The translations under genes and the position numbers were made by a program. Positions 269 through 10,517 of a stretch of DNA of 10,701 bases are shown here, one piece after another. The DNA comes from Thermoplasmata archaeon (GTDB lineage: Archaea > Thermoplasmatota > Thermoplasmata > Thermoplasmatales > Thermoplasmataceae): the NCBI GenBank assembly GCA_021827885.1, contig JAKAUD010000046.1, positions 1-10,701 on the forward strand. The letters run 5' to 3'. Numbering within the stretch: position 1 is the stretch's first letter; every line of letters starts with the position of its first letter. Below the pieces are notes generated by a model. It worked only from the letters and a program-made list of their open reading frames with translations. It searched no databases and had not been told where the DNA came from.

Positions 269-1003
269 TTAGAGTGTATTAATGGTGCCTCGCACAACTT
301 CAACTGCACCGAGATACTTAGGAAATTGATCTGGTACAAGAATGCTCGATGAAAAGACCCCACGCCATCTTTTTCCCCTTACTAAATAAAGCTTAACATA
401 ATCGGTATATTCGAAACCTTCGGCTGAATCTGTATAATAATATATTTTTGACATTCCAGTTTCTCTCTCTACTGCAAGTATCATAAGATTGGCTGTTGAA
501 ATTATCAAATTTTTTTTCTTGGCTTCAGTAAGTGCATTATGAAGTCTCTCCGCGAATTCACCTTTGAATGACATGATATACTTTAGAAACATGTGACTGT
601 CGACGAGCGTACCATAATTGTTTATCCCCATTTCCCGGGCAATAGCCGACTTGTTAAACCATCCATTATGAGCAAGGTAAACTTCATACTGATCATCAGA
701 CTCAAAATGCGGATGGCTTGCCATTGTGCCCATTGGTTCTCCGGTCGCCGCTCTTCTTGCATGAACAATAAGGTTTCCATTGTAGAACTCTGGCATAGTG
801 GAATTGAATACAGGTACACTTGATCGAAAATAATCGACTGATTTGCCGCTGTGATAAACATATCCCCAGCCATGGTCGTGTGATCTAAAGTCCCCTTCCT
901 TTGCTGTAATTATCGGATCATTTTTAGTAACCTCAAGAAATGATTTGAAGATTAAGCCAAAGTCGTCAGAATAATCCCCAGTAAGACAGAACATCCTGCA
1001 CAT
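269..1003 (-). CDS. class II glutamine amidotransferase-fold hydrolase (YafJ/EgtC-like)
   Basis: This 244-residue protein is a stand-alone N-terminal nucleophile glutamine amidotransferase domain. After removal of Met1 the nucleophile would be Cys2 (MCRMFCLTG). Other family motifs are HDHGWGY (42-48), HARRA (81-85, in place of the usual H-x-R-W), SHPHF (96-100), AHNGWF with the oxyanion-hole Asn-Gly (111-116) and DSH (135-137). No synthetase or isomerase domain is attached, so it resembles YafJ/EgtC proteins that hydrolyse amide or gamma-glutamyl bonds. The ATG at 1003 is chosen because it places Cys at position 2. It is the last gene of the minus arm, 56 bases after the epimerase. Given the neighbours, a role in removing amides or gamma-glutamyl links from muropeptides is possible but unproven. 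The fold is confident; the substrate is not known. Confidence 0.85.
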   Translation of the reverse strand: MCRMFCLTGDYSDDFGLIFKSFLEVTKNDPIITAKEGDFRSHDHGWGYVYHSGKSVDYFRSSVPVFNSTMPEFYNGNLIVHARRAATGEPMGTMASHPHFESDDQYEVYLAHNGWFNKSAIAREMGINNYGTLVDSHMFLKYIMSFKGEFAERLHNALTEAKKKNLIISTANLMILAVERETGMSKIYYYTDSAEGFEYTDYVKLYLVRGKRWRGVFSSSILVPDQFPKYLGAVEVVRGTINTL

Positions 1004-1020
1004 AAAATTGTCAGTGTTTA

Positions 1021-1031
1021 CTTATTAATAA
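1021..1031 (-). promoter_or_regulatory. TATA-like box for the amidotransferase-fold gene
   Basis: Read on the minus strand, the segment is TTATTAATAAG, centred about 23 bases upstream of the ATG at 1003. No Shine-Dalgarno motif lies between, which fits a leaderless or nearly leaderless transcript. A second AT-rich candidate near 1036-1045 cannot be excluded. Confidence 0.4.
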
Positions 1032-1059
1032 TTCTTCATTAACAATCTCACTGCTTGCT

Positions 1060-2133
1060 TCACGGCATAAATTCTTTCTTAGGAGGTGCGCCAACACCCG
1101 GAAGATCGCGTTCTAAAACCACTTCCCCATTTTTCATCAAAATACCGCTATCCACTGAATCTTTCGCAATATTGTTGTACCCATCCAGATCGGCATATTT
1201 TACTCCTGATCTGGACAAAGCAACAATGAGACCGGAAGTATTAGCAAGCCTTGTCTCAACCATGCAACCGATCATAACAGGTACACCAAAAGATTCGGCA
1301 ACGTCAACCATCTTTATTGCATCACTGATACCGCCGGATTTCATGAGTTTAACGTTGATCCCGTCTGCGGCTTCCCTAGAAAGGATATCCGCAACGTTCC
1401 TTTTGGTAAATATTGATTCATCCGCAAATATAGGAATATCACTGTTGTCTCTTGCGAATTTCAATCCACTTATATCATCTGCCGGGACTGGTTGCTCGAG
1501 AAATTCGATATTGAAATCCCTGAGTTTTTTAGATATTTCTACGGTCATCTTGGGGGTATATGCTTGATTGAAATCCACATAAATCTTGGGTTTTGATCCT
1601 ACAACGTCTCTGACAACTCTAACGCGTTCCACATCCTGGTCTATTCCAGATCCCATCTTTATCTTGAACACTTTGATTCCCATACTAGCCAGATCTATGG
1701 CCTGCTTTTCAGCAGATTTTGCATCTACAAGATCCACTGTATATGATGTGGCAATGCTGCTTTTATGATTGCCCAGTATTTTTTTTAGATTCTGGCCAGA
1801 TTTTTTTCCTATTATATCCCAAAGAGCGCAGTCAATGGCATTTCTGCTGGCCTTAGATGATTTCATCATTGACTTCATCTTATCATTTACAAGTTCTGGA
1901 GATTCTTCCATTCCTATTAGATTCTTAGAAAAGGCCGAAAGTTCATATTCAATTGAACCAAGGGTATCGCCGGTTATGAAAGGAGTTGTTGTGGCCTCGC
2001 CGTAGCCCACGGTTCCATCATCTGATTCCACAGACACGAAGTATCCTTCGTATGATTCTGTGCTACCCAATGCAATCTTGAAGGGTTTCTTCATTTCTAT
2101 GCTGACTTTCCTGAAGACAATTTTTTTAATCAT
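1060..2133 (-). CDS. dipeptide epimerase (L-Ala-D/L-Glu epimerase type, enolase superfamily)
   Basis: This 357-residue protein belongs to the muconate-lactonizing subgroup of the enolase superfamily. The N-terminal capping domain (about 1-125) is followed by a modified TIM barrel. Visible catalytic features are the K-x-K pair K157/K159 (FKIKMG), metal ligands D187 (VDFN), E213 (LEQP) and D238 (ADES), and the second base K265 (VKLMKSGG). A D-L-D motif at 315-317 (YADLDG) matches the D-x-D that binds the free amino group of the dipeptide in Ala-Glu epimerases (YcjG, YkfB). This makes it more specific than a generic mandelate racemase annotation. The known reaction converts L-Ala-D-Glu from murein peptides to L-Ala-L-Glu. 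It has no signal peptide, so it is cytoplasmic. Its neighbours MurQ and M19 dipeptidase fit muropeptide breakdown. Other dipeptide specificities occur in this group. Confidence 0.88.
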   Translation of the reverse strand: MIKKIVFRKVSIEMKKPFKIALGSTESYEGYFVSVESDDGTVGYGEATTTPFITGDTLGSIEYELSAFSKNLIGMEESPELVNDKMKSMMKSSKASRNAIDCALWDIIGKKSGQNLKKILGNHKSSIATSYTVDLVDAKSAEKQAIDLASMGIKVFKIKMGSGIDQDVERVRVVRDVVGSKPKIYVDFNQAYTPKMTVEISKKLRDFNIEFLEQPVPADDISGLKFARDNSDIPIFADESIFTKRNVADILSREAADGINVKLMKSGGISDAIKMVDVAESFGVPVMIGCMVETRLANTSGLIVALSRSGVKYADLDGYNNIAKDSVDSGILMKNGEVVLERDLPGVGAPPKKEFMP

Positions 2134-2150
2134 TGGAAGGAAAGAATTTG

Positions 2151-2164
2151 TTATAATATTAAAC
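2151..2164 (-). promoter_or_regulatory. TATA-like box for the dipeptide epimerase
   Basis: The minus-strand sequence GTTTAATATTATAA lies in the 43-base gap after murQ. It is centred about 25 bases upstream of the ATG at 2133, consistent with a leaderless transcript separate from murQ. Confidence 0.5.
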
Positions 2165-2176
2165 TGTTCCAGGTCC

Positions 2177-2998
2177 CTATTTTTTTGACTTTACCAGTTC
2201 TATTGCCTTCGATATGTCATAATCTACACTCTCTAGAATTCTACCAGCATCTTCATTTGAAAGCCCAAATTGCTGTCTAAGAATACTCACTGCCCTGATT
2301 TTCAGTTTTTGATTGTACCATGAACCCATGTTTGACATAGTGTTCTTGTATGTCCTTCCAAGTCTTATCGCCACAGCCGTTGAAATAATATTTAATGTCA
2401 TCTTCTGTGCAGTACCTGCCTTCATCCTGGTTGAACCTTGAATTACTTCTGGTCCGGTTATGAGTTCTATACAGAGGTTTGATATTTCATGTATGGGCTT
2501 ATTGAGATTACATGTAATGCCAACAGTGGTACAACCTAAATTTCTAGCGTATTTCAAAGCTGTAATTACGAATGGTGTGGACCCTGATGCCGTAATTCCG
2601 ATAACCAAATCATTTCTGTTTATTTTCATGTTTTTCAATGCATCTTCTGCATCCTTTTCACTGTCTTCTGAACCCTCTATTGACTGAACAAGGGCACTAC
2701 TGCCTCCAGCCATTAAGTAAGCAAAAACGTCTGATCCCATCCCGTACGTAGGTTTTAACTCCACAACATCCTGAGCTGCTATTCTACCGCTGGTTCCTGC
2801 ACCAACATATATTACTCGCCCACCATTTTTAATTGCCCCGTAAGCCATCTCAGCAGCCTTTGCTATATGCTCAATTTCCCTTCCAACGGCTTCGTACGAC
2901 TCTATGTCTGAAAGATGTATGAAGTGAGCAATTTCGTAAAAGCTCCAGTTATCGATGTCCCTTGTATAAGGATTAACATCCTCAGTTGTTCCGGCCAT
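2177..2998 (-). CDS. murQ: N-acetylmuramic acid 6-phosphate etherase
   Basis: MurQ removes the D-lactyl ether from MurNAc-6-phosphate, giving GlcNAc-6-phosphate and D-lactate. The 273-residue protein shows the family signature along its length: a SIS-type sugar-phosphate site GAGTSGR (66-72), VELKPTYG (79-86), AGGSSALVQSIEGSED (97-112), ASGSTPFV, then GPEVIQGSTRMKAGTAQK and N-x-KLKIRA near the C-terminus. E80 and E111 align with E. coli E83 and E114, the catalytic acid and base, so the active site appears intact. It lacks about 25 residues at the C-terminus relative to the 298-residue E. coli enzyme, but the UBA-like C-terminal helices are largely present. An in-frame stop lies three codons upstream of the ATG, which fixes this start. 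Its substrate is unique to peptidoglycan, which makes it the diagnostic gene of the cluster. GckR-like or other SIS proteins are less likely given the full MurQ signature. Confidence 0.95.
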   Translation of the reverse strand: MAGTTEDVNPYTRDIDNWSFYEIAHFIHLSDIESYEAVGREIEHIAKAAEMAYGAIKNGGRVIYVGAGTSGRIAAQDVVELKPTYGMGSDVFAYLMAGGSSALVQSIEGSEDSEKDAEDALKNMKINRNDLVIGITASGSTPFVITALKYARNLGCTTVGITCNLNKPIHEISNLCIELITGPEVIQGSTRMKAGTAQKMTLNIISTAVAIRLGRTYKNTMSNMGSWYNQKLKIRAVSILRQQFGLSNEDAGRILESVDYDISKAIELVKSKK

Positions 2999-3027
2999 TT
3001 GTAATCACGAAAGGAGATATTCAAGCA

Positions 3028-3038
3028 CTTTATATTTC
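3028..3038 (-). promoter_or_regulatory. TATA-like box for murQ
   Basis: The minus-strand sequence GAAATATAAAG is a good archaeal TATA match in the 54-base gap between nagA and murQ. Its centre lies about 35 bases upstream of the ATG at 2998, predicting a short leader of roughly 9 bases. No clear Shine-Dalgarno motif is positioned for the start. Confidence 0.5.
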
Positions 3039-3052
3039 ATAGCCATGGTTTT

Positions 3053-4201
3053 TCATTTTGCAGGAATAATCGTGCCACCTATCATTGTACCGACAATATT
3101 CATGCTGGTATCAAGGAAGTTTATATCCGCTCTCTTTCCTGGTGCAATGTCACCGCGATCATTAAGTCCGAGGAGTGCGGCTGGGTTTGTGGAAAATGCC
3201 TTTGCAAGATCAGTTAGGTTCGCACCAATAGTGTGAAGGTTGCGAAATGCCTGATCCAAGGTAAGTACACTTCCAGCTATTGTATCAGTCCCAGAAATCC
3301 AAGCTACACCGTCGTGCACTTCTGTTTTCAAGCCTCCAAGCACCGACTCTCTCTGTTCTGTTCCACCAACTGATAATGAGTCAGTAATTGCAATTACTTT
3401 ATTCCATCCTTTCATCTTTACCATTATTCTGATTGCTTCTCTGGAAACATGATGGAAATCTGCGATAATCTCAAGAAATGCATCTGGGGACAGCAGGCCA
3501 GCCCCCACCATGCCAGGATTTCGGTGATCAAATTGTGTCATTGCATTATAGAAGTGAGTCATAGCTTTAACGCCGCTTGAAAGTGCTACCGATGCTGTCT
3601 TGAAATCAGCACTGGAATGCCCGGCTGAGACAATTATACCGGCCCTCTGCAACATGGCAAATGCACTGCCAAAATCGGCGAGTTCAGGCGCCATATCCAT
3701 AATTCTGAGAGTCCCGTTACAAGAATCCAATATTCGCTCAATTTCAGAGAAATTTATGTTTCTGACAAATGCGGGATTATGTGCACCTTTCTTTTCCTTA
3801 CTTATGTATGGACCCTCACTTCTGGCACCTATAATTCTAGCCTCACCGTTATGTTGATTCATGACAGTTCTTGATATCTTATTTACAAAGGAAATAAGAT
3901 TCTCTGTGGAGGCTGAAACACAGGTCGGTATAAATGAGGTAACACCTGTCACCGCAATTTGCCTAGCCCATCTGTGAATTTCCTCTTCATCGGATTCCAT
4001 AGCATCAACACCATAATAGCCATGAGTATGGATGTCGATGAAGCCAGGCACAGCAGTATGTAATCTGAACTTATCCATTGTTTCATAAATCGGATGAAAG
4101 GATAAGCTCTTCACCACACCTTCAGATATGTTGATATATCCATTTTCAAGAATGCCGCCGGCGGCAACGATTTTCGTACACGAAACACTGAACTCTCTCA
4201 T
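3053..4201 (-). CDS. nagA: N-acetylglucosamine-6-phosphate deacetylase
   Basis: NagA hydrolyses GlcNAc-6-phosphate to glucosamine-6-phosphate and acetate in the cytoplasm. This 382-residue protein has normal family length and the amidohydrolase-fold signature: PGFIDIHTHG with H58 and H60, EGP with metal ligand E129 followed by KKGAHN, SAGHSSA with H195, MTHFYNAM with H216, DHRNPGMVGAGL (225-236) for substrate contact, HHVS (250-253), and catalytic D274 in ITDS. The C-terminal IAGSVLTLD segment is also typical. All metal and catalytic positions expected of the family are present. It is the first gene of the minus arm, transcribed away from the SIS-domain deaminase across a shared 101-base region, and directly upstream of murQ, whose product is its substrate. 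Generic deacetylases of the family are a less likely alternative. Confidence 0.95.
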   Translation of the reverse strand: MREFSVSCTKIVAAGGILENGYINISEGVVKSLSFHPIYETMDKFRLHTAVPGFIDIHTHGYYGVDAMESDEEEIHRWARQIAVTGVTSFIPTCVSASTENLISFVNKISRTVMNQHNGEARIIGARSEGPYISKEKKGAHNPAFVRNINFSEIERILDSCNGTLRIMDMAPELADFGSAFAMLQRAGIIVSAGHSSADFKTASVALSSGVKAMTHFYNAMTQFDHRNPGMVGAGLLSPDAFLEIIADFHHVSREAIRIMVKMKGWNKVIAITDSLSVGGTEQRESVLGGLKTEVHDGVAWISGTDTIAGSVLTLDQAFRNLHTIGANLTDLAKAFSTNPAALLGLNDRGDIAPGKRADINFLDTSMNIVGTMIGGTIIPAK

Positions 4202-4229
4202 TTTTTCCAGACGAAATGAAAGCTATAGC

Positions 4230-4238
4230 GTATTAAAG
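4230..4238 (-). promoter_or_regulatory. TATA-like box for nagA
   Basis: The minus-strand sequence CTTTAATAC is centred about 33 bases upstream of the nagA ATG. A second AT-rich element, AGCTATAGC at 4221-4229, sits between it and the start and is itself nearly palindromic. No Shine-Dalgarno motif is seen. Confidence 0.4.
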
Positions 4239-4269
4239 AACTTGTTGCAAGTACCTTTGTGGTGATGAA

Positions 4270-4278
4270 AAATTTATA
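4270..4278 (+). promoter_or_regulatory. TATA box for the SIS-domain deaminase gene
   Basis: AAATTTATA, preceded by a purine-rich GATGAAA that could act as a BRE, is centred about 28 bases upstream of the ATG at 4303. The expected transcription start falls at or within a base or two of the ATG, supporting a leaderless transcript and the first of two nearby Met codons as the start. Confidence 0.6.
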
Positions 4279-4286
4279 CAGGACGA

Positions 4287-4302
4287 TTGGCTATTTTGCC
4301 AA
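4287..4302. promoter_or_regulatory. palindromic candidate operator
   Basis: TTGGC-N6-GCCAA is a perfect 5+5 inverted repeat filling the space between the TATA box and the ATG at 4303, so it would cover the predicted transcription start. That is a typical position for an archaeal repressor site. I do not find the same palindrome at the other promoters of the window, so any regulon-wide role is unsupported. Confidence 0.35.
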
Positions 4303-5286
4303 ATGACAATAATGCTAGATGAAATAAAACAGGAACCTAATGCCATTAAACAGACTTATCTGAAAGAGGTTAAGTCCATTCAATTGGCAAGTGATATAAT
4401 TTCCAATTCCTCCATGGTTTATATAAGTGGAAGTGGCACCAGTTTCCATGCTTCAGCATTTCTCAGTATGTTATTAAATAAGGCCGGGTTTCCATCCTGT
4501 GCGATTCAAGCATCAAATTACGATGAATTCCTTCTGGACCGGATCCGGGAAAAATCTGTAAACATCATTTTCAGTCAGTCTGGAGAAAGCACAGACGCCC
4601 TCTTTAACCTGACTCTTTCAAAGAAGAAGAAAATTTCTGTAATAGGAATAACTAACGAAGAAAACAGCACACTTGCAAAGAATTCTGATATATGCATAGT
4701 TACCCGAGCAGGTAATGAAAGGTCCGTTGCTGCGACGAAGAGCCACTCCGTCCAGCTTGCTTCTGCGATTCTGATATATCATAAAATAACCGGAAATGAA
4801 CCTGAGAAGGTCCTGAACAATGTAATTAACGGAATATCTGAACTTATTGTAAATCAGAATGAGATTAATAGATTATCACGTCGTCTGTCCAACCACGTGG
4901 TTTTTTTAGGTTCAGGATTAGATTATACAGTTGCGATGGAGGGTGATCTAAAATTTAAGGAGACTTCGGGCATATACACTGAATCTTATGTCACCAGAGA
5001 ATATTTGCATGGCCCCATCCATAGATTAGGTAAGGAAACATCAGTCGTCATTCTTTATGGAGATAAAGTAAAGGATGCGCCAGTTATAAGCAGGATAAAG
5101 GAAATTGCAGGTAATCCATTAATAATAGGAAGCTCGGATGGAGACATCAAATTCGAAGAAATGAATATGTTGGAAAAACCACTAGTATATCTTACTGCTG
5201 TCCAAATGATGGCTAATTTTAAAGCCGTTGCCATGGGGCAGGATCCGGACCATCCAGCCAACCTGACTAAGGTAGTAAAAGAATAG
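4303..5286 (+). CDS. SIS-domain glucosamine-6-phosphate deaminase/isomerase (GlmS C-terminal/NagB-II type)
   Basis: The 327-residue protein consists of two tandem SIS domains like the isomerase half of GlmS, without the glutaminase domain. Domain one carries SGSGTS (42-47), SQSGES (91-96) and AATKSHSVQLA (143-153). Domain two carries GSGLDYTVAMEG (203-214), LKFKE ending in E220, and EYLHGP with E233 and H236, equivalent to the ring-opening and isomerisation residues of GlmS. The ending DPDHPANLTKV is typical of this group. Such stand-alone enzymes act as glucosamine-6-phosphate deaminases in Thermococcus chitin breakdown (GlmD) and in NagB-II bacteria, giving fructose-6-phosphate and ammonia. 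Divergent pairing with nagA, which makes its substrate, favours this catabolic direction. AgaS-like activity on galactosamine-6-phosphate or a FrlB-like role are less likely alternatives. Confidence 0.88.
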   Translation: MTIMLDEIKQEPNAIKQTYLKEVKSIQLASDIISNSSMVYISGSGTSFHASAFLSMLLNKAGFPSCAIQASNYDEFLLDRIREKSVNIIFSQSGESTDALFNLTLSKKKKISVIGITNEENSTLAKNSDICIVTRAGNERSVAATKSHSVQLASAILIYHKITGNEPEKVLNNVINGISELIVNQNEINRLSRRLSNHVVFLGSGLDYTVAMEGDLKFKETSGIYTESYVTREYLHGPIHRLGKETSVVILYGDKVKDAPVISRIKEIAGNPLIIGSSDGDIKFEEMNMLEKPLVYLTAVQMMANFKAVAMGQDPDHPANLTKVVKE

Positions 5287-5291
5287 AAGTG

Positions 5292-5299
5292 TTTTATAT
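5292..5299 (+). promoter_or_regulatory. TATA box for the serine hydrolase gene
   Basis: TTTTATAT begins five bases after the stop codon of the deaminase gene and is centred about 25 bases upstream of the ATG at 5321. The spacing fits a leaderless transcript from its own promoter despite the 34-base intergenic gap. Confidence 0.55.
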
Positions 5300-5320
5300 G
5301 ATCCCAAAATATTTCAATCT

Positions 5321-6400
5321 ATGGCAAGTAAACGTGACGAACTTGAGGAGTTACTGAAGAATTTTATTGATGCCAATTACGCTTCTGCTGCACCTGGAAT
5401 GGATATTCTGGTAAGAGGAAATAACTTCAATTTCGAGTATTGGACTGGTTCTATTCCTGAACTCAATTTTAGTTACAAACGGGATACTATTTATGACATG
5501 GCGTCACTGACGAAGCCCGTAGTTACTGCAACACTTGTGATGAAGATATTAGAGGCAGGAAAGATCGGACTTGAGGATACACTGCAATCGCTTGGAATCT
5601 ACAGCTCAGAATTCGCCATCAGCAAACTTACCATACGAGAACTTATTACTCATACCTCAGGATTGATCCCAACATATCCATTGTACAAATACGGTACTAC
5701 TAGAGAGGATTATCTCCGAACTATCGCGATAATGCATGAAAGAAGACTACCGGTTGCAGAGGAATACAGCGACTTAAATTATATCCTTCTGGGTTTAATT
5801 ATTGAACGCATTATGGGTAAGAATCTGGACGATATTGCTCAGGAATATATTTTCAAACCAGCTGGCATGAAGAACAGCTGCTTCAATCCAAAGGCAGATC
5901 TAGAAAAAATTGCACCTACGGAGAATGATCCAGACAGGGGCGGTTTAGTATGGGGAAAGGTGCATGATGAAAAGTCCTACTACCTTGGTGGAGTAGCAGG
6001 TCATGCAGGGATGTTCAGCACAATTGAAGACATGGGAAAATATGTTGAAGCTCTTTTGAATTATAAATTATTGAAGAAACAAACACTTGATGAGATGATA
6101 CAACCTCAAAATGCTTTTATTGGAGGTATGTTTGGAATCGGATGGATGATAAAAGTTAGGAAACCGATTTCTCCCAGTCCATCCTTTGGCTATAATGGTT
6201 TTATGGGAGATGTGGCTCCAGTTGGAACATTTGGGCATACCGGTTTTACTGGAACCTCAATATCCATAGAACCGTTGTCGGGTACCTCTGTAATAATACT
6301 GAGCAACAGGGTATACCCTACGAGAGAGAATATTGGAATACTCAGGTTTCGCAGGCTGTTCCACAATTTAGTTTACTCACACATTCCAGAGGGTGATTAG
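5321..6400 (+). CDS. serine beta-lactamase-fold hydrolase, candidate muropeptide amidase (AmiE/YbbE-like)
   Basis: This 359-residue cytoplasmic protein has the three active-site motifs of the serine beta-lactamase/penicillin-binding fold: S62-L-T-K65 (MASLTKP), Y149-S-D151 (YSDLNYILLG) and H306-T-G308 (GHTGFTGTS, replacing K-T-G). The stretch VHDEKSYYLGGVAGHAGMFS (214-233) is typical of the subgroup that includes Bacillus subtilis YbbE/AmiE and the serine-hydrolase half of fused NagZ proteins in Bacteroidetes. In B. subtilis, AmiE is reported as an N-acetylmuramyl-L-alanine amidase encoded beside murQ and nagZ. That context recurs here, so release of peptide from MurNAc is the best inference. 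There is no signal peptide, which argues against a periplasmic carboxypeptidase or beta-lactamase. An esterase or D-aminopeptidase role remains possible. Fold is certain; substrate is inferred mainly from context. Confidence 0.85.
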   Translation: MASKRDELEELLKNFIDANYASAAPGMDILVRGNNFNFEYWTGSIPELNFSYKRDTIYDMASLTKPVVTATLVMKILEAGKIGLEDTLQSLGIYSSEFAISKLTIRELITHTSGLIPTYPLYKYGTTREDYLRTIAIMHERRLPVAEEYSDLNYILLGLIIERIMGKNLDDIAQEYIFKPAGMKNSCFNPKADLEKIAPTENDPDRGGLVWGKVHDEKSYYLGGVAGHAGMFSTIEDMGKYVEALLNYKLLKKQTLDEMIQPQNAFIGGMFGIGWMIKVRKPISPSPSFGYNGFMGDVAPVGTFGHTGFTGTSISIEPLSGTSVIILSNRVYPTRENIGILRFRRLFHNLVYSHIPEGD

Positions 6401-6401
6401 G

Positions 6402-6420
6402 TTAATTAGACTAAATATTA
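6402..6420 (+). promoter_or_regulatory. weak AT-rich promoter candidate for the sugar kinase
   Basis: The 29-base gap before the kinase contains TTAATTAGA and then TAAATATTA. The first is centred about 24 bases from the ATG, the second only about 14. Neither is a strong TATA match and no Shine-Dalgarno motif is present, so the kinase may be co-transcribed with the serine hydrolase or expressed from this weak element. Confidence 0.25.
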
Positions 6421-6429
6421 TCTCAAAAA

Positions 6430-7449
6430 ATGCATTTTGTATCTGTGGATGGTGGTGCAACCAAGACACTGGCCGCGTGTTATTCAGAGGATGGCGATAT
6501 TCTTGGGGTCGGAGTAGCCGGACCCAGTAACTTTAGAAATATTGGTGTAGAAAAGACCAAAGAAAATCTTTCTGCTGCTGTTAATAAAAGTCTCGAGAGA
6601 GCAGGCCTCAATAGTAATGATATTTCGCAATTCTCTTTCGCCCTTGCCGGTGTCAAAGATTCAAAGAAATCTACCGAAATCATCCAGACATTCATTGGGG
6701 AAATGAGATATGGAAGAAAAGTGATGGTTCTTAACGATGGCGAAGCTGGTTTCAACTGCAGGTTTCCAGGAAAGGATGGGATAATAGCTGCACCTGGAAC
6801 TGGAATGATTGCATACGCCCGTAGAGGTAGTGTTTTCGAAAGGTCAAGTGGATGGGGATGGTTCATAGGGGACGAAGGTGGTGCCTTCTACACAGCCAGA
6901 AGATCAATTCAGGAATCAGCAAAGGTGTTCGACGGGAGACTTGAATCGGATAGTAGGATTCCTGAGGCACTCCTGAGATACTTCAGAGTTACTGAGCCAA
7001 GACAGCTTGTGAATGAAGTGTATACAGATCCGATCGATATCAGAAGGATCGCGGCATTTACCAAAATAATATCAGACTATGCAAACAATGGAGATTTCAT
7101 GGCCATATCACTGCTCACGGAGTCAGCTCTGGAATCGGCAAAGTGTGTGATTGCCCTTAAAGAGCGTGTCTTCAGGGATACTGATGTGAACTTCAGCGGG
7201 TATGGCGGTGTGTACCGGGCTGGCGATTTATACTGGAAAACTCTCATAAAGTCAGTTGCAGATAAGTATCCAGCAATGAACCCAATTCGGCCACTTTACG
7301 GTTATCATGCTGTAATAGGATCAATGTATCTTGTTTTGTCGTCGTTAAAAATTGATATGGAATTTGATCCAGATATTGTGGCTAAGAACCTTGAAAAAGC
7401 AATAGAAGGAATCTCTTCGACTGAAAGGCGGGAATTTCTCTTGATTTAG
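6430..7449 (+). CDS. BadF/BcrA-family sugar kinase, candidate MurNAc/GlcNAc kinase (MurK-like)
   Basis: This 339-residue ASKHA-fold protein has the phosphate-1 loop D7-GGATKT13, the phosphate-2 region NDGEAG (102-107), the APGTGMIAY segment (121-129), the family-defining GWGWFIGDEGGAF (141-153) and an adenosine-binding SGYGGVYRAGD (256-266). It belongs to the BadF/BadG/BcrA/BcrD ATPase family, which includes human GlcNAc kinase and the bacterial MurK enzymes of Clostridium acetobutylicum and Tannerella that phosphorylate both MurNAc and GlcNAc at O6. The cluster has MurQ but no phosphotransferase transporter, so a kinase making MurNAc-6-phosphate is required, and this is the only candidate in the window. 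A caution is that Thermoplasma acidophilum 2-keto-3-deoxygluconate kinase comes from the same family, so specificity cannot be read from motifs alone. Confidence 0.85.
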   Translation: MHFVSVDGGATKTLAACYSEDGDILGVGVAGPSNFRNIGVEKTKENLSAAVNKSLERAGLNSNDISQFSFALAGVKDSKKSTEIIQTFIGEMRYGRKVMVLNDGEAGFNCRFPGKDGIIAAPGTGMIAYARRGSVFERSSGWGWFIGDEGGAFYTARRSIQESAKVFDGRLESDSRIPEALLRYFRVTEPRQLVNEVYTDPIDIRRIAAFTKIISDYANNGDFMAISLLTESALESAKCVIALKERVFRDTDVNFSGYGGVYRAGDLYWKTLIKSVADKYPAMNPIRPLYGYHAVIGSMYLVLSSLKIDMEFDPDIVAKNLEKAIEGISSTERREFLLI

Positions 7450-7486
7450 TGACTCATGATAATGTAGATTTTTTTGTAGTGAGTAG

Positions 7487-7493
7487 TTATAAT
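7487..7493 (+). promoter_or_regulatory. TATA box for the M19 dipeptidase gene
   Basis: TTATAAT is centred 26 bases upstream of the ATG at 7516 in a 66-base gap after the kinase. An eight-T run at about 7469-7476, just upstream, could terminate kinase transcription. An ATG at 7511 is followed at once by a stop in its frame, so 7516 is the right start. Confidence 0.55.
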
Positions 7494-7515
7494 CCCCACT
7501 TGCTATCACTATGAT

Positions 7516-8448
7516 ATGAACTTCACCGATCTGCATGAAGATATAGCTTACTCATCTCAGAAGATAGATGTTATAGATGGACTAGAGCAGTCAAGCATAA
7601 AATTGCTTTCAAGATTCGATTCAGCATTCATTCTTTCTTCAATCTTCCCTTTCTTCCCATCAATGCGCCCCAGTGAAACTGAATCAGGTAGTAGCGGTGG
7701 AACGTTTGACCACTACAACATTCCTGACTGGAATGTTATGATGGAACAGATAAGCTTTCATATGCTCCTTGAGAGAGCAAGAAAGATAAAACTTGTTAGG
7801 AGAAAAGAAGATCTTGATGAATCCGGGATAAAACTACTATTGGCTATGGAAGGAACAGATGTTTTACGGCTCCCAGAGGATATTTTTACAATTCACGCAC
7901 TGGGTGTTAGGTCAGTAGGACTAAGCTGGAATTACGACAATAAGTTCGCAGCAAGTTATCTTTCTCGTAAAGATTATGGGCTTACGGGCTTTGGCCGCAA
8001 GCTGGTTTCTTTCTGTAAGGATCTTGGTATTGCAGTGGATCTATCACATGCGAGTCCAAAGACCATTGAAGATGTTATGAGCACAGAGCATGGTCCGGTT
8101 TTTATTTCACACGGAAATCCTGCTGCTGTTTTCAAACATGCTAGGAACTATTCAGATGATATTATCAAGGCTATTGCTCACGAGGGGGGGATTATAGGAA
8201 TCACTGGAATACGTTCAACTCTGGGATATGGACAGGATATAGATGCCTTTCTAAGGCATATAGAACATGTTGGGAAAGTAGCCGGATGGAAACACGTGGC
8301 CATAGGGTCTGATCTCCTTGGAGTTGACCAGCCGGTACCGGGTCTTGAAGACGTCTCAAAATTTCAAGTTCTCCTGACCATGCTTGGGAGTCAGGCAGAG
8401 GACGTTCTATGGAGGAATGGACTGAACTTTTTTAAAAGAACTCTCTGA
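7516..8448 (+). CDS. M19 (renal/membrane-type) dipeptidase
   Basis: This 310-residue zinc peptidase of family M19 hydrolyses dipeptides, commonly those with a D-residue at the C-terminal position. The binuclear metal ligands are visible: H7-x-D9 at the N-terminus (DLHED), E112 (LLAMEGTD), H178 (VDLSHAS) and H199 (PVFISHGN). R210 and D266 (IGSDLLG) complete the usual active site. SWNYDN (137-142) and GLTGFGRKLV (155-164) are also characteristic. There is no signal peptide or anchor, so unlike mammalian renal dipeptidase it is cytoplasmic, as in most prokaryotic relatives. In this cluster it would split L-Ala-L-Glu from the epimerase, or L-Ala-D-Glu and D-Ala-D-Ala directly. It is somewhat shorter than many members but no motif is missing. 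Family assignment is firm; substrate is inferred. Confidence 0.9.
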   Translation: MNFTDLHEDIAYSSQKIDVIDGLEQSSIKLLSRFDSAFILSSIFPFFPSMRPSETESGSSGGTFDHYNIPDWNVMMEQISFHMLLERARKIKLVRRKEDLDESGIKLLLAMEGTDVLRLPEDIFTIHALGVRSVGLSWNYDNKFAASYLSRKDYGLTGFGRKLVSFCKDLGIAVDLSHASPKTIEDVMSTEHGPVFISHGNPAAVFKHARNYSDDIIKAIAHEGGIIGITGIRSTLGYGQDIDAFLRHIEHVGKVAGWKHVAIGSDLLGVDQPVPGLEDVSKFQVLLTMLGSQAEDVLWRNGLNFFKRTL

Positions 8449-9359: not shown

Positions 9360-10517
9360 ATGAGACAATTAATTACAATATTATTAATGATAATAATAGT
9401 CTCCGGATTTTCTCTGATAACATCAACCAGCGGTGAAACAAATTTATTTGCCCATGATCAACAGCCACTGGCAATTGCAGATTTAACCAATGCCAATGTA
9501 CCTATAGGTTATGACTTATACAACTACAACGGATCGCTCGCTGTTCATTACGGACTCCTAGTTGATTCAAGTTACTTTCACAAAGAGTATTATCCATCAG
9601 GAGCTAATCTTTCAATATACCAGAAGAATCTAGATTTTTTTAATTCTGAAGATTGCGCACATTTTGTATCTGAAGCGCTGATCCACGGTGGTCTCATAGC
9701 CCTTTCGCAGAACCCCCCGGGTGACAACCTTACAAATTACTTGTCAGGCTTTCCTGGAAGTTACGGTATCGTCGGTGTATACAGACTGGCAAATTATCTT
9801 GCCGGATACGATCTTCCAATCTTCCCTGCGAATTCCACCATAGAGGGGATTATTGGATACCAACCGATTCCTGCCTCATATAACGGTAGCCCACACGCTT
9901 CAGTATTTTACGTAACAAATGATTCACTTCTCCCATCATATTTCCTTTGGCCTGGCGATGTTGTAATAGATGGTGGAGTTGGAAACGGTCACTCTATGTT
10001 ATATGTTGGAAACGATACAGTTGTACAAACTGATCCAGCTGGGACGTGGGATTACGTCCCCGGAGCAGATGCCAACATTACGTTCAATTACTTGAACCAG
10101 TACAATGGAGAAAACGTTTCAGCAATTTATATTCACATTCCAACATTTCGCGGAAAACACGATGTTAGAATAACCGCATTATCAGGGACATCAGTAATCC
10201 CAAGTGGATCTACAGCTGATACGGTAATACTCATAGGTTCATTTCCTCAGGGTGTCGGACTAGGCAACTACAGTTATTCGTGGTCGGATAACGGAAAGGT
10301 TTTCTCCGATGATCAGACTACAAAAATTATACTTAATCCCGGCGAAAATCAGATTGAGCTGGAAGCTACAGGAAGCAACGGTACCGCCTATGCTAATTTT
10401 ACGCTGGAAGGGACAAGCGGCTTTTCTCTTTTTTCGTTTCCCGGTGTACTTATAATAGCATTACCGGTCATAGGCGTAGTCGTTGCTGCTTCTGCTATAC
10501 TGTATCGTCGGAGGTAA
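9360..10517 (+). CDS. secreted, membrane-anchored cysteine amidase/endopeptidase-like protein
   Basis: The 385-residue protein starts with a signal peptide (hydrophobic residues about 4-20, ending near TSTSGE). The catalytic region (about 45-260) has SEDCAHFVSEALIHGG, in which C99 matches the nucleophile of the Amidase_6-like/papain-fold group (D-C-x-x-F-V-S). WPGDVVI (197-203) and GNGHSMLYVGN with H211 supply the expected histidine. An immunoglobulin/PKD-like beta-sandwich follows (about 267-350). A C-terminal hydrophobic helix (about 360-382) ends in RRR, anchoring it to the cell surface with the enzyme outside. There are 12 N-x-S/T sequons, implying heavy N-glycosylation. Relatives of this fold act on cell-wall peptides, and the following gene is a D-Ala-D-Ala carboxypeptidase homologue, so attack on bacterial peptidoglycan is a fair inference. 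The exact bond cut is unknown. Confidence 0.75.
   Translation: MRQLITILLMIIIVSGFSLITSTSGETNLFAHDQQPLAIADLTNANVPIGYDLYNYNGSLAVHYGLLVDSSYFHKEYYPSGANLSIYQKNLDFFNSEDCAHFVSEALIHGGLIALSQNPPGDNLTNYLSGFPGSYGIVGVYRLANYLAGYDLPIFPANSTIEGIIGYQPIPASYNGSPHASVFYVTNDSLLPSYFLWPGDVVIDGGVGNGHSMLYVGNDTVVQTDPAGTWDYVPGADANITFNYLNQYNGENVSAIYIHIPTFRGKHDVRITALSGTSVIPSGSTADTVILIGSFPQGVGLGNYSYSWSDNGKVFSDDQTTKIILNPGENQIELEATGSNGTAYANFTLEGTSGFSLFSFPGVLIIALPVIGVVVAASAILYRRR
10510..10515 (+). promoter_or_regulatory. Shine-Dalgarno motif for the downstream carboxypeptidase gene
   Basis: GGAGGT overlaps the last two codons and stop of the surface amidase gene, with 12 bases between it and the ATG at 10528. It is the only strong Shine-Dalgarno match I see before a gene in the window. 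It suggests the downstream gene is translated from a shared transcript instead of a leaderless one. Confidence 0.5.

What the first reader, a model, noticed from the sequence alone, without database searches (positions are those of the whole stretch)
269..8448. A near-complete peptidoglycan amino-sugar and peptide catabolic cluster in an apparently wall-less archaeon
Eight adjacent genes read as successive steps: muropeptide amidase, MurNAc/GlcNAc kinase, MurQ, NagA, SIS deaminase for the sugar, and Ala-Glu epimerase plus M19 dipeptidase for the peptide. MurQ's only established natural substrate, MurNAc-6-P, comes from bacterial murein, and pseudomurein has no MurNAc. Promoter layout looks archaeal and Thermoplasmatales-like, a group without a cell wall. 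This implies feeding on bacterial wall fragments, probably through genes acquired from bacteria. I know of no described system of this kind in archaea, though I cannot search.
Basis: partly seen in the sequence, partly recalled or inferred. Interest (0 to 1): 0.88.

Follow-up and report, generated by a model that had tools for sequence, protein, structure and literature searches.

The report
Archaeal bacterial-cell-wall scavenging gene cluster
An archaeon related to the acid-loving Picrophilus carries genes that look fit for taking apart fragments of bacterial cell walls and using the sugars and amino acids as food, although its relatives show no sign of making such a wall themselves.

Summary
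The eight genes are real, and the core idea holds: a peptidoglycan-scavenging cluster in a Thermoplasmata archaeon. The window's MurQ falls in one clade with 26 other Thermoplasmata MurQs (SH-aLRT 98), beside that of Picrophilus oshimae; both catalytic glutamates are kept.

MurQ neighbourhoods read in 28 genomes repeat parts of the cluster and add genes outside the window: NamZ, NagZ, AnmK, NlpC/P60 and S13 peptidases, oligopeptide transporters, GlcD/GlcF-like oxidoreductases and diaminopimelate decarboxylase. In 117 genomes of the order, 22 have MurQ and 21 NamZ, 20 both. All 22 have diaminopimelate decarboxylase; none has DAP epimerase, only 5 DapB. FtsW/RodA and transpeptidase were found in none of the 22.

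Corrections: the first gene is a class-II glutamine-amidotransferase-like protein; the epimerase lacks the Arg of the Bacillus Ala-Glu enzyme; "wall-less" is unproven (Picrophilus has an S-layer). A ninth gene, 9360-10517, belongs: a membrane-anchored protein with an NlpC/P60-like fold.

Single steps are known enzymes. My searches of an open library, read as partial listings, showed no account of this pathway in archaea; muropeptide feeding was proposed for Pyrococcus Pab87. Nothing has been assayed.

The parts
269..1003 (-). Class-II glutamine amidotransferase-like protein (GATase_4), N-terminal Met-Cys; role in the cluster unknown, perhaps gamma-glutamyl hydrolysis (inference)
   Evidence: Pfam PF13230 29.3 bits over cut-off 23; no NCBIfam match; homologue in 5 of 28 related loci; Met-Cys start and motifs
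1060..2133 (-). Dipeptide epimerase (enolase superfamily), candidate for murein L-Ala-D-Glu
   Evidence: Best PDB 3jva 215 bits, then L-Ala-D/L-Glu epimerase 1jpm 197 bits; catalytic Lys, metal ligands and DxD (positions recalled) invariant in the window protein and 14 relatives, Gly in all 15 at the place of Arg24 of 1jpm; NF041118 206 bits under cut-off 500
2177..2998 (-). MurQ, N-acetylmuramic acid 6-phosphate etherase
   Evidence: PRK05441 327 bits over 168, TIGR00274 278 bits under 302; residues 5-269 match solved MurQs 4s12, 4lzj and HI0754 1nri; E80 and E111 conserved in all 107 aligned rows, two of which are one sequence; Thermoplasmata clade
3053..4201 (-). NagA, N-acetylglucosamine-6-phosphate deacetylase
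   Evidence: TIGR00221 272 bits over 225.65; motifs HTHG, EGP, GHS, THF, ITD (their role as metal site recalled)
4273..4278 (+). TATA-box-like TTTATA 30 nt before the ATG at 4303, in the divergent NagA/SIS intergenic region
   Evidence: read by eye; not tested statistically
4303..5286 (+). Double-SIS glucosamine-6-phosphate deaminase candidate (GlmD/NagB-II type, without the GlmS glutaminase domain)
   Evidence: PF01380 in two stretches; GlmS isomerase part 195 bits, NagB-II 126.5 bits, GlmD 106.7 bits, all under their cut-offs; PDB 1moq, 8eol, 1j5x
5321..6400 (+). S12 serine peptidase (PBP4B/alkaline D-peptidase-like), candidate D-amino-acid peptidase; no hydrophobic N-terminus
   Evidence: PF00144 148 bits; PBP4B model 119 bits under cut-off 385; PDB best 4y7p alkaline D-peptidase; SLTK, YSD, HTG motifs; hydropathy; homologue in 23 of 28 loci
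6430..7449 (+). BadF/BcrAD-type amino-sugar kinase, candidate MurNAc/GlcNAc kinase
   Evidence: PF01869 124.6 bits; PDB 2e2n hexokinase 102 bits and 8zo3 MurNAc/GlcNAc kinase 96 bits; NagK_SO3507 80 bits under cut-off 370
7516..8448 (+). M19 dipeptidase
   Evidence: PF01244 208.5 bits; PDB 3neh, 3lu2; homologue in 3 of 28 loci
9360..10517 (+). Membrane-anchored, probably extracellular NlpC/P60-fold protein with PKD/Ig-like domain and C-terminal transmembrane helix; candidate murein peptidase

Best explanation
This is the intracellular core, plus one surface enzyme, of a pathway by which a Picrophilus-related archaeon feeds on bacterial peptidoglycan. Shown here: the gene families, their clustering across Thermoplasmata, co-occurrence with NamZ, AnmK and DAP decarboxylase, conserved catalytic residues, and absence of two peptidoglycan-synthesis markers in relatives. 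Inferred order: (1) the surface NlpC/P60-fold protein (9360-10517) cuts wall peptides outside the cell; (2) muropeptides enter through an oligopeptide ABC transporter (seen in relatives); (3) in the cytosol NagZ, NamZ and AnmK (relatives) free or phosphorylate the sugars, while S12, S13 and NlpC/P60 peptidases trim the peptides; (4) the kinase makes MurNAc-6-P and GlcNAc-6-P, MurQ removes D-lactate to give GlcNAc-6-P, NagA gives GlcN-6-P, the SIS deaminase gives fructose-6-P and ammonia; (5) the epimerase and M19 dipeptidase recover Ala and Glu from L-Ala-D-Glu, DAP decarboxylase (relatives) turns meso-DAP into lysine, and in some relatives GlcD/GlcF-like proteins may oxidise the D-lactate.
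For: Families and residues. MurQ clade with Picrophilus. Neighbourhoods of 28 genomes; the window's divergent order epimerase-MurQ-NagA / SIS-S12-kinase recurs in L106, from a single contig of 1.94 Mb, and in L135; the Picrophilus locus also has S13, LysA, NlpC, SBP, S12, NagZ, epimerase and NamZ. MurQ/NamZ: 20 genomes with both, 2 MurQ only, 1 NamZ only, 94 neither, Fisher p 2.8e-19; 17 of 20 pairs within 17.4 kb. AnmK 11 of 117, all MurQ-positive. LysA (E at most 1e-40) 22 of 22 MurQ-positive against 33 of 95 others, p 3.8e-9; over the curated cut-off 21 of 22 against 21 of 95. DapF 0 of 22, DapB 5 of 22. FtsW/RodA 0 of 22, transpeptidase 0 of 22; controls ring in 10 of 14.
Against: No biochemistry or growth data. 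No NagZ, NamZ, AnmK, NlpC/P60 family hit, LysA or transporter was identified in the window; that they lie nearby is inferred from relatives. Window MurQ is under the TIGR00274 equivalog cut-off (278 against 302), and the kinase, SIS, epimerase and S12 proteins are under the cut-offs of their closest function-specific models. One source names the Picrophilus MurQ after the glucokinase regulatory protein. The epimerase has Gly where the Bacillus enzyme has Arg24. M19 recurs in only 3 of 28 loci and GATase_4 in 5 of 28. MurQ was not found in 95 of 117 genomes of the order, so this is an accessory trait. Five of 22 genomes have DapB, and LysA also occurs in 33 MurQ-negative genomes. Genomes are related and partly incomplete, so the p values overstate independence.
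Confidence: 0.85

Rival explanations
1. The cluster processes an archaeal surface glycan or other 3-O-lactyl amino sugar, and MurQ/NamZ have been recruited to it; bacterial walls are irrelevant.
For: Several enzymes (NagA, kinase, SIS deaminase, S12 peptidase) are generic, and the function-specific cut-offs are not reached for kinase, SIS, epimerase and S12.
Against: It does not account for the peptide side: DAP decarboxylase in 22 of 22 genomes with DapF in 0 and DapB in 5, and NlpC/P60 in 18, S13 in 13 and epimerase in 15 of 28 loci. AnmK, in 12 of 28 loci, points to the anhydro sugar of bacterial murein turnover (recalled).
Confidence: 0.06
2. GlcNAc or chitin catabolism, with MurQ retained for a side reaction and the peptidases serving ordinary peptide use.
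For: NagA, kinase, deaminase and the M19 dipeptidase fit general amino-sugar and peptide use.
Against: NamZ accompanies MurQ in 20 of 22 genomes, within 17.4 kb in 17 of 20; both MurQ catalytic glutamates are kept.
Confidence: 0.05
3. The contig is bacterial or chimeric.
For: MurQ and its partners are best known from bacteria; the window's own genome is not held, no tRNA gene was found in the window, and rRNA was not searched for.
Against: Window MurQ groups with Picrophilus (97) inside a clade of 27 Thermoplasmata rows (98); the same gene order lies on a 1.94-Mb single contig of the same order; window epimerase, S12, NagA, kinase and 9360-10517 have best homologues at 50-68% identity in those loci, the SIS protein 47%, GATase_4 and M19 40%.
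Confidence: 0.02
4. An antibacterial weapon system rather than a feeding pathway: the surface NlpC/P60-fold protein kills bacteria and the rest detoxifies or recycles fragments.
For: Archaeal peptidoglycan hydrolases can kill bacteria (PMC12352652, abstract start in listing, passages and section 6), and Thermoplasmatota are named there as prominent carriers.
Against: Most of the cluster looks like intracellular catabolism: no hydrophobic N-terminus in NagZ (0 of 17), NamZ (0 of 17), S12 (0 of 24) or NlpC (0 of 18) by a simple hydropathy scan. Killing and feeding do not exclude each other.
Confidence: 0.12

Closest known systems
Bacillus subtilis MurNAc catabolic operon (murQ, nagZ, namZ, amiE, murR, murP; recalled)
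   Same: MurQ with NagZ and NamZ in one cluster, seen in relatives L001, L138 and the Picrophilus locus
   Different: Host group in which two wall-synthesis markers were not found; PTS and MurR were not searched for and none is among the labelled neighbours; uptake probably by oligopeptide ABC transporter; a BadF-type kinase could replace PTS phosphorylation
Bacillus subtilis ykfABCD murein-peptide operon (recalled)
   Same: Dipeptide epimerase, NlpC/P60 and Opp components occur together in relatives such as L138, L141, L142; the L105 NlpC/P60 has an SH3 domain
   Different: In Thermoplasmata these lie in the same neighbourhood as the sugar genes and, in part of the loci, with DAP decarboxylase, S13 and S12 peptidases
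Pyrococcus abyssi Pab87 (CubicO, S12) D-peptidase
   Same: Archaeal S12 peptidase, DD-carboxypeptidase on muropeptides; authors propose processing of bacterial debris as nutrient (PMC2651629, passages); 2qmi (recalled as Pab87) matches the window S12 protein at 41.6 bits
   Different: No MurNAc catabolism in the passages seen; context there is aminotransferase, D-aminoacylase and dipeptide transporter; other S12 chains match the window protein better
Archaeal peptidoglycan hydrolases (Woldo, Danwoldo; Aciduliprofundum GH25)
   Same: Archaeal enzymes acting on bacterial walls (PMC12352652; PMC4241558 passages, which also raises a nutritive role)
   Different: Described as antibacterial proteins; the survey was restricted to modular hydrolases with a binding domain, and a find in its main text gave no 'MurQ', 'recycl', 'catabol' or 'muramic'
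Culexarchaeum nevadense locus L054
   Same: Kinase, MurQ, NamZ, NagZ and AnmK within about 7.6 kb
   Different: MurQ outside the Thermoplasmata clade; none of the NagA, epimerase or peptidase queries hit this 10.3-kb contig

Membership tests
MurQ (MurNAc-6-P etherase) | Full-length similarity to solved MurQs and the curated subfamily models | tested here: met
   residues 5-269 aligned with 4s12, 4lzj, 1nri; PRK05441 327 over 168, PRK12570 294 over 255
MurQ (MurNAc-6-P etherase) | Two catalytic glutamates (recalled as E83/E114 of E. coli MurQ) | tested here: met
   E80 and E111: 28 of 28 archaeal rows (one of them a paralogue), 76 of 76 bacterial rows, 3 of 3 paralogue rows, one sequence standing in two groups; the Culexarchaeum row, L120 and L142 were not in that alignment
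MurQ (MurNAc-6-P etherase) | NCBI equivalog score of TIGR00274 | tested here: not met
   278.3 bits against 302; an annotation threshold, not a functional residue. The model rings in 6 of 14 control genomes, over the cut-off in 5
MurQ (MurNAc-6-P etherase) | Cleavage of MurNAc-6-P to GlcNAc-6-P and D-lactate | not testable with these tools
   needs an enzyme assay
NagA | Equivalog score and metal-site motifs | tested here: met
   TIGR00221 272 over 225.65, while PRK11170 gives 181 against 483; motifs
L-Ala-D/L-Glu epimerase (AEE) | Acid-base lysines, three metal ligands, DxD motif of dipeptide epimerases (recalled) | tested here: met
   all invariant in 15 of 15
L-Ala-D/L-Glu epimerase (AEE) | Arg24 of B. 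subtilis AEE (Glu specificity, recalled) | tested here: not met
   Gly in 15 of 15, as in 3jva; filed as dipeptide epimerase, not as AEE
GlmD/NagB-II glucosamine-6-P deaminase | Two SIS domains without the GlmS glutaminase domain | tested here: met
   two PF01380 stretches, 327 aa, aligned to GlmS model positions 253-604
GlmD/NagB-II glucosamine-6-P deaminase | Equivalog scores NF046059, NF041128 | tested here: not met
   126.5 against 430 and 106.7 against 580
MurK/NagK-type kinase (BadF/BcrAD fold) | Family score and nucleotide-binding motifs | tested here: met
   PF01869 124.6 over 31.5; DGGATKT, NDG, GTG, GDEG
MurK/NagK-type kinase (BadF/BcrAD fold) | NagK equivalog score | tested here: not met
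   NF046058 80 against 370
MurK/NagK-type kinase (BadF/BcrAD fold) | Phosphorylation of MurNAc | not testable with these tools
   PDB 8zo3 MurNAc/GlcNAc kinase is second-best match; needs an assay
S12 serine peptidase (PBP4B type) | SxxK, YxN/YSD and HTG motifs | tested here: met
   all three in the window protein; among 23 relatives the patterns searched were found in 21, 18 and 23
S12 serine peptidase (PBP4B type) | PBP4B equivalog score | tested here: not met
   119 against 385; filed as S12 family only
NlpC/P60-type murein peptidase (9360-10517) | Papain-like fold with conserved Cys and His | tested here: met
NlpC/P60-type murein peptidase (9360-10517) | Pfam family score | tested here: inconclusive
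   no Pfam match for the window protein at 0.001; PF12671 Amidase_6 in 14 of 34 homologues at E up to 0.01
Complete peptidoglycan catabolic pathway | Glycosidases and importer present | tested here: inconclusive
   none identified in the 10.7-kb window; NamZ in 17, NagZ in 16, OppB in 11 of 28 related loci

The most novel reading that the evidence does not exclude
Some Thermoplasmata live partly as bacteria-eaters: a surface NlpC/P60-fold protein family, so far named only from archaea, opens bacterial walls, perhaps of living cells, and one co-inherited cluster uses nearly every product (MurNAc, GlcNAc, D-lactate, Ala, Glu, and meso-DAP as a lysine source in archaea in which the tested DAP-synthesis markers are mostly missing). 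This would be the first complete wall-to-metabolism route described in archaea.
Probability: 0.35. Interest if true: 0.88.

Novelty: new variant of a known kind. Interest (0 to 1): 0.74.

Why it matters
Peptidoglycan is an abundant bacterial polymer, and its use as food has been studied mainly in bacteria (general knowledge). A conserved, co-inherited catabolic cluster in archaea without the peptidoglycan-synthesis markers tested would be a purely nutritive use of MurQ, NamZ, AnmK and DAP decarboxylase. It would explain DAP decarboxylase in genomes where DAP epimerase was not found, would link the recently described archaeal peptidoglycan hydrolases to a metabolic benefit, and is directly testable in a cultured organism, Picrophilus oshimae.

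Tried and rejected
'Muropeptide amidase' for 269-1003: rejected, only GATase_4 matches. 'Wall-less host': not accepted, since the nearest named relative has an S-layer. 'Bacterial contig': rejected. The full-length model of 9360-10517 matched only its PKD/Ig-like domain in fold searches; the catalytic part was then modelled alone (residues 1-3 and 73-80 of that model have pLDDT under 50), where Foldseek had no match under E 0.001 and VIA-align gave NlpC/P60-type peptidases. A profile search of the PDB gave only marginal matches. Weak MurQ matches in G089 and G096 were not counted as MurQ. In the tree L033 and L035 were skipped because my extraction gave too short a frame; L103 was left out by the program; L101 and L102 were badly extracted and their place is meaningless; the MurQs of L120 (contig end) and L142 (my ORF caller gave only 180 aa, although one search reports an open frame of 286) were not in it. 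Counts are lower bounds: the loci are 4-21 kb and several end at contig ends; labels are best BLASTP hits at E up to 1e-5, so paralogues may be included (a second kinase in L106; the L143 'epimerase' is only 37% identical). Notebook entries written hold some counts that differ; the report uses.

Literature: searches in open-licence PubMed Central, judged from titles and abstract starts of the rows listed (listed of found): searches (20 of 2,381; 20 of 146; 0 of 0; 20 of 72; 2 of 2; 9 of 9; 20 of 236; 20 of 232; 10 of 16), 64 (15 of 2,108). No listed title or abstract start reported MurNAc catabolism in archaea; the two papers were not opened. Subscription papers are mostly not held, and the dipeptide-epimerase specificity paper that I wanted was not held. 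Term finds in PMC12448462, PMC5155288, PMC10354927, PMC9287336 and PMC3750248 gave no passage on murein use.

Full report
WHAT IS THERE. The window holds nine substantial genes. On the minus strand from the left: GATase_4 (269-1003), a dipeptide-epimerase-like protein (1060-2133), MurQ (2177-2998) and NagA (3053-4201); then on the plus strand a double-SIS deaminase-like protein (4303-5286), an S12 serine peptidase (5321-6400), a BadF/BcrAD-type kinase (6430-7449), an M19 dipeptidase (7516-8448) and, after a 911-bp gap, a membrane-anchored protein (9360-10517).

HOW FIRM THE ENZYME NAMES ARE. MurQ aligns over residues 5-269 with three solved MurQ-family proteins, passes two NCBI subfamily models (327 over 168; 294 over 255) but not the TIGR00274 equivalog threshold (278 against 302). 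Both catalytic glutamates (roles recalled) are present in all 107 rows aligned, two of which are one sequence. NagA passes the TIGR00221 equivalog model. The kinase's best PDB matches are a hexokinase (2e2n) and a MurNAc/GlcNAc kinase (8zo3). The SIS protein resembles the GlmS isomerase part and GlmD/NagB-II deaminases, without a glutaminase domain. The S12 protein has the SxxK, YSD and HTG motifs. Kinase, SIS, epimerase and S12 proteins are all far below their function-specific NCBI cut-offs. The epimerase keeps the catalytic lysines, metal ligands and DxD motif in 15 of 15 proteins, but Gly replaces the Arg24 of the B. subtilis Ala-Glu enzyme in all 15. The literature warns that AEE-family proteins occur in organisms without peptidoglycan and can have other dipeptide substrates (PMC3605383, passages). 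So it is filed as a dipeptide epimerase with Ala-Glu as the likely substrate from context.

WHOSE GENES THEY ARE. No genome is held for the window. A MurQ match 66% identical is named after Picrophilus oshimae by one source, on contigs up to 1,545,895 bases; another source names it after the glucokinase regulatory protein. In a maximum-likelihood tree of 110 MurQ-like rows, the window and 26 Thermoplasmata rows form one clade (SH-aLRT 98), with the window beside G026 and G341 (97). The tree is a quick one and unrooted; it does not name a bacterial donor. A second, smaller Thermoplasmata MurQ-like group and the Culexarchaeum MurQ lie elsewhere.

THE CLUSTER IN RELATIVES. MurQ (E at most 1e-20) is in 22 of 117 genomes of the order of G026; in a draw of 300 genomes of the class, 19 matched at 1e-10, two of them weakly and one as a fragment. 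I read the MurQ neighbourhoods of 28 genomes (loci; labels). Labels by best BLASTP hit, as loci of 28: S12 23, NagA 22, NlpC/P60 18, NamZ 17, SIS 16, NagZ 16, kinase 15, epimerase 15, SBP 13, S13 13, AnmK 12, OppB 11, OppDF 10, OppC 9, LysA 9, homologue of 9360-10517 9, ElyC-like 7, GNAT 7, GlcD 6, GlcF 6, GATase_4 5, NagB 5, M19 3. The window's own divergent order recurs in L106, from a single contig of 1.94 Mb, and in L135. In the genome with the Picrophilus MurQ the run is kinase, SIS, NagA, MurQ, S13, LysA, NlpC, SBP, S12, NagZ, epimerase, NamZ, ElyC-like, from about C4:8,980 to 25,590.

INDEPENDENT TESTS. NamZ, an exo-muramidase family that rings in 3 of 14 control genomes, is in 21 of 117 genomes of the order: 20 also have MurQ, Fisher p 2.8e-19, and in 17 of these 20 it lies within 17.4 kb; in the other three it is on another contig. 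AnmK is in 11 of 117, all MurQ-positive. DAP decarboxylase (E at most 1e-40) is in 22 of 22 MurQ-positive and 33 of 95 MurQ-negative genomes (p 3.8e-9), over the curated cut-off in 21 of 22 and 21 of 95, and on the MurQ contig in 13 of 22. DAP epimerase is in 0 of 22 and DapB in 5 of 22, so 17 of these genomes show neither marker of DAP synthesis; meso-DAP from bacterial walls is the natural substrate (inference). FtsW/RodA and the PBP transpeptidase domain were found in none of the 22, while both ring in 10 of 14 control genomes. Genomes are related to one another and partly incomplete, so the Fisher values overstate independence and absences carry that caveat.

MECHANISM. The order of steps is given under Best explanation. 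Gene presence, clustering and residues are shown; substrates, direction and localisation are inferred. By a simple hydropathy scan NagZ, NamZ, S12, NlpC and S13 of the relatives have no hydrophobic N-terminus, while 12 of 13 solute-binding proteins and 8 of 9 homologues of 9360-10517 do, which fits import of muropeptides followed by digestion inside.

KNOWN AND NEW. Each step is known from bacteria; B. subtilis splits similar gene sets between its murQ and ykf operons (recalled). That archaea may use muropeptides was proposed for Pab87 of Pyrococcus (PMC2651629, passages), and a nutritive role was raised for the Aciduliprofundum lysozyme (PMC4241558, passages); archaeal wall hydrolases were reported to kill bacteria (PMC12352652, passages and one section). 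My searches of the open library (listings only, mostly partial) showed no report of a MurNAc pathway in archaea; databases do annotate archaeal MurQ. MurQ (TIGR00274, E at most 1e-40) also occurs in 28 of 398 genomes drawn from the phylum of Culexarchaeum, so the trait is not limited to Thermoplasmata. I rate it a new variant of a known kind.

Noticed in passing
L054 (Culexarchaeum nevadense contig): Kinase, MurQ, NamZ, NagZ and AnmK lie close together in a non-Thermoplasmata archaeon; MurQ (TIGR00274, E at most 1e-40) is in 28 of 398 genomes drawn from its phylum.
   Followed up: partly
L104, L132, L133: A second, divergent MurQ-like protein (37-42% to the window) in some Thermoplasmata genomes that also have the main one; it branches away from the main clade.
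   Followed up: partly
L108, L111, L112, L117, L118, L140: GlcD- and GlcF-like oxidoreductase genes in the MurQ neighbourhood, a candidate route for oxidising D-lactate, MurQ's by-product; the closest NCBI model is glycolate oxidase GlcD, under its cut-off.
   Followed up: partly
L115, L116, L117, L118, L120: Where no SIS deaminase was labelled in the locus, these five carry a NagB-I type deaminase (PF01182) near AnmK, the kinase or the 9360-10517 homologue: apparent non-homologous replacement.
   Followed up: partly
window:269-1003: The GATase_4 protein recurs in 5 of 28 MurQ loci; it may hydrolyse gamma-glutamyl bonds, but nothing here tests that.
   Followed up: no
window:8449-9359: A 911-bp stretch between M19 and the membrane-anchored protein without an ORF of 60 aa or more.
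   Followed up: no
L105:3586-5448: A Cas_TM1802 (CRISPR-associated) gene lies about 1 kb before the kinase of the Picrophilus cluster.
   Followed up: no
L106:12825-13859: A TrmB-type sugar-responsive regulator lies near the cluster in the genome G069, a candidate regulator.
   Followed up: no
L107:12471-13292: An M55 D-aminopeptidase lies inside the cluster of genome G176.
   Followed up: no
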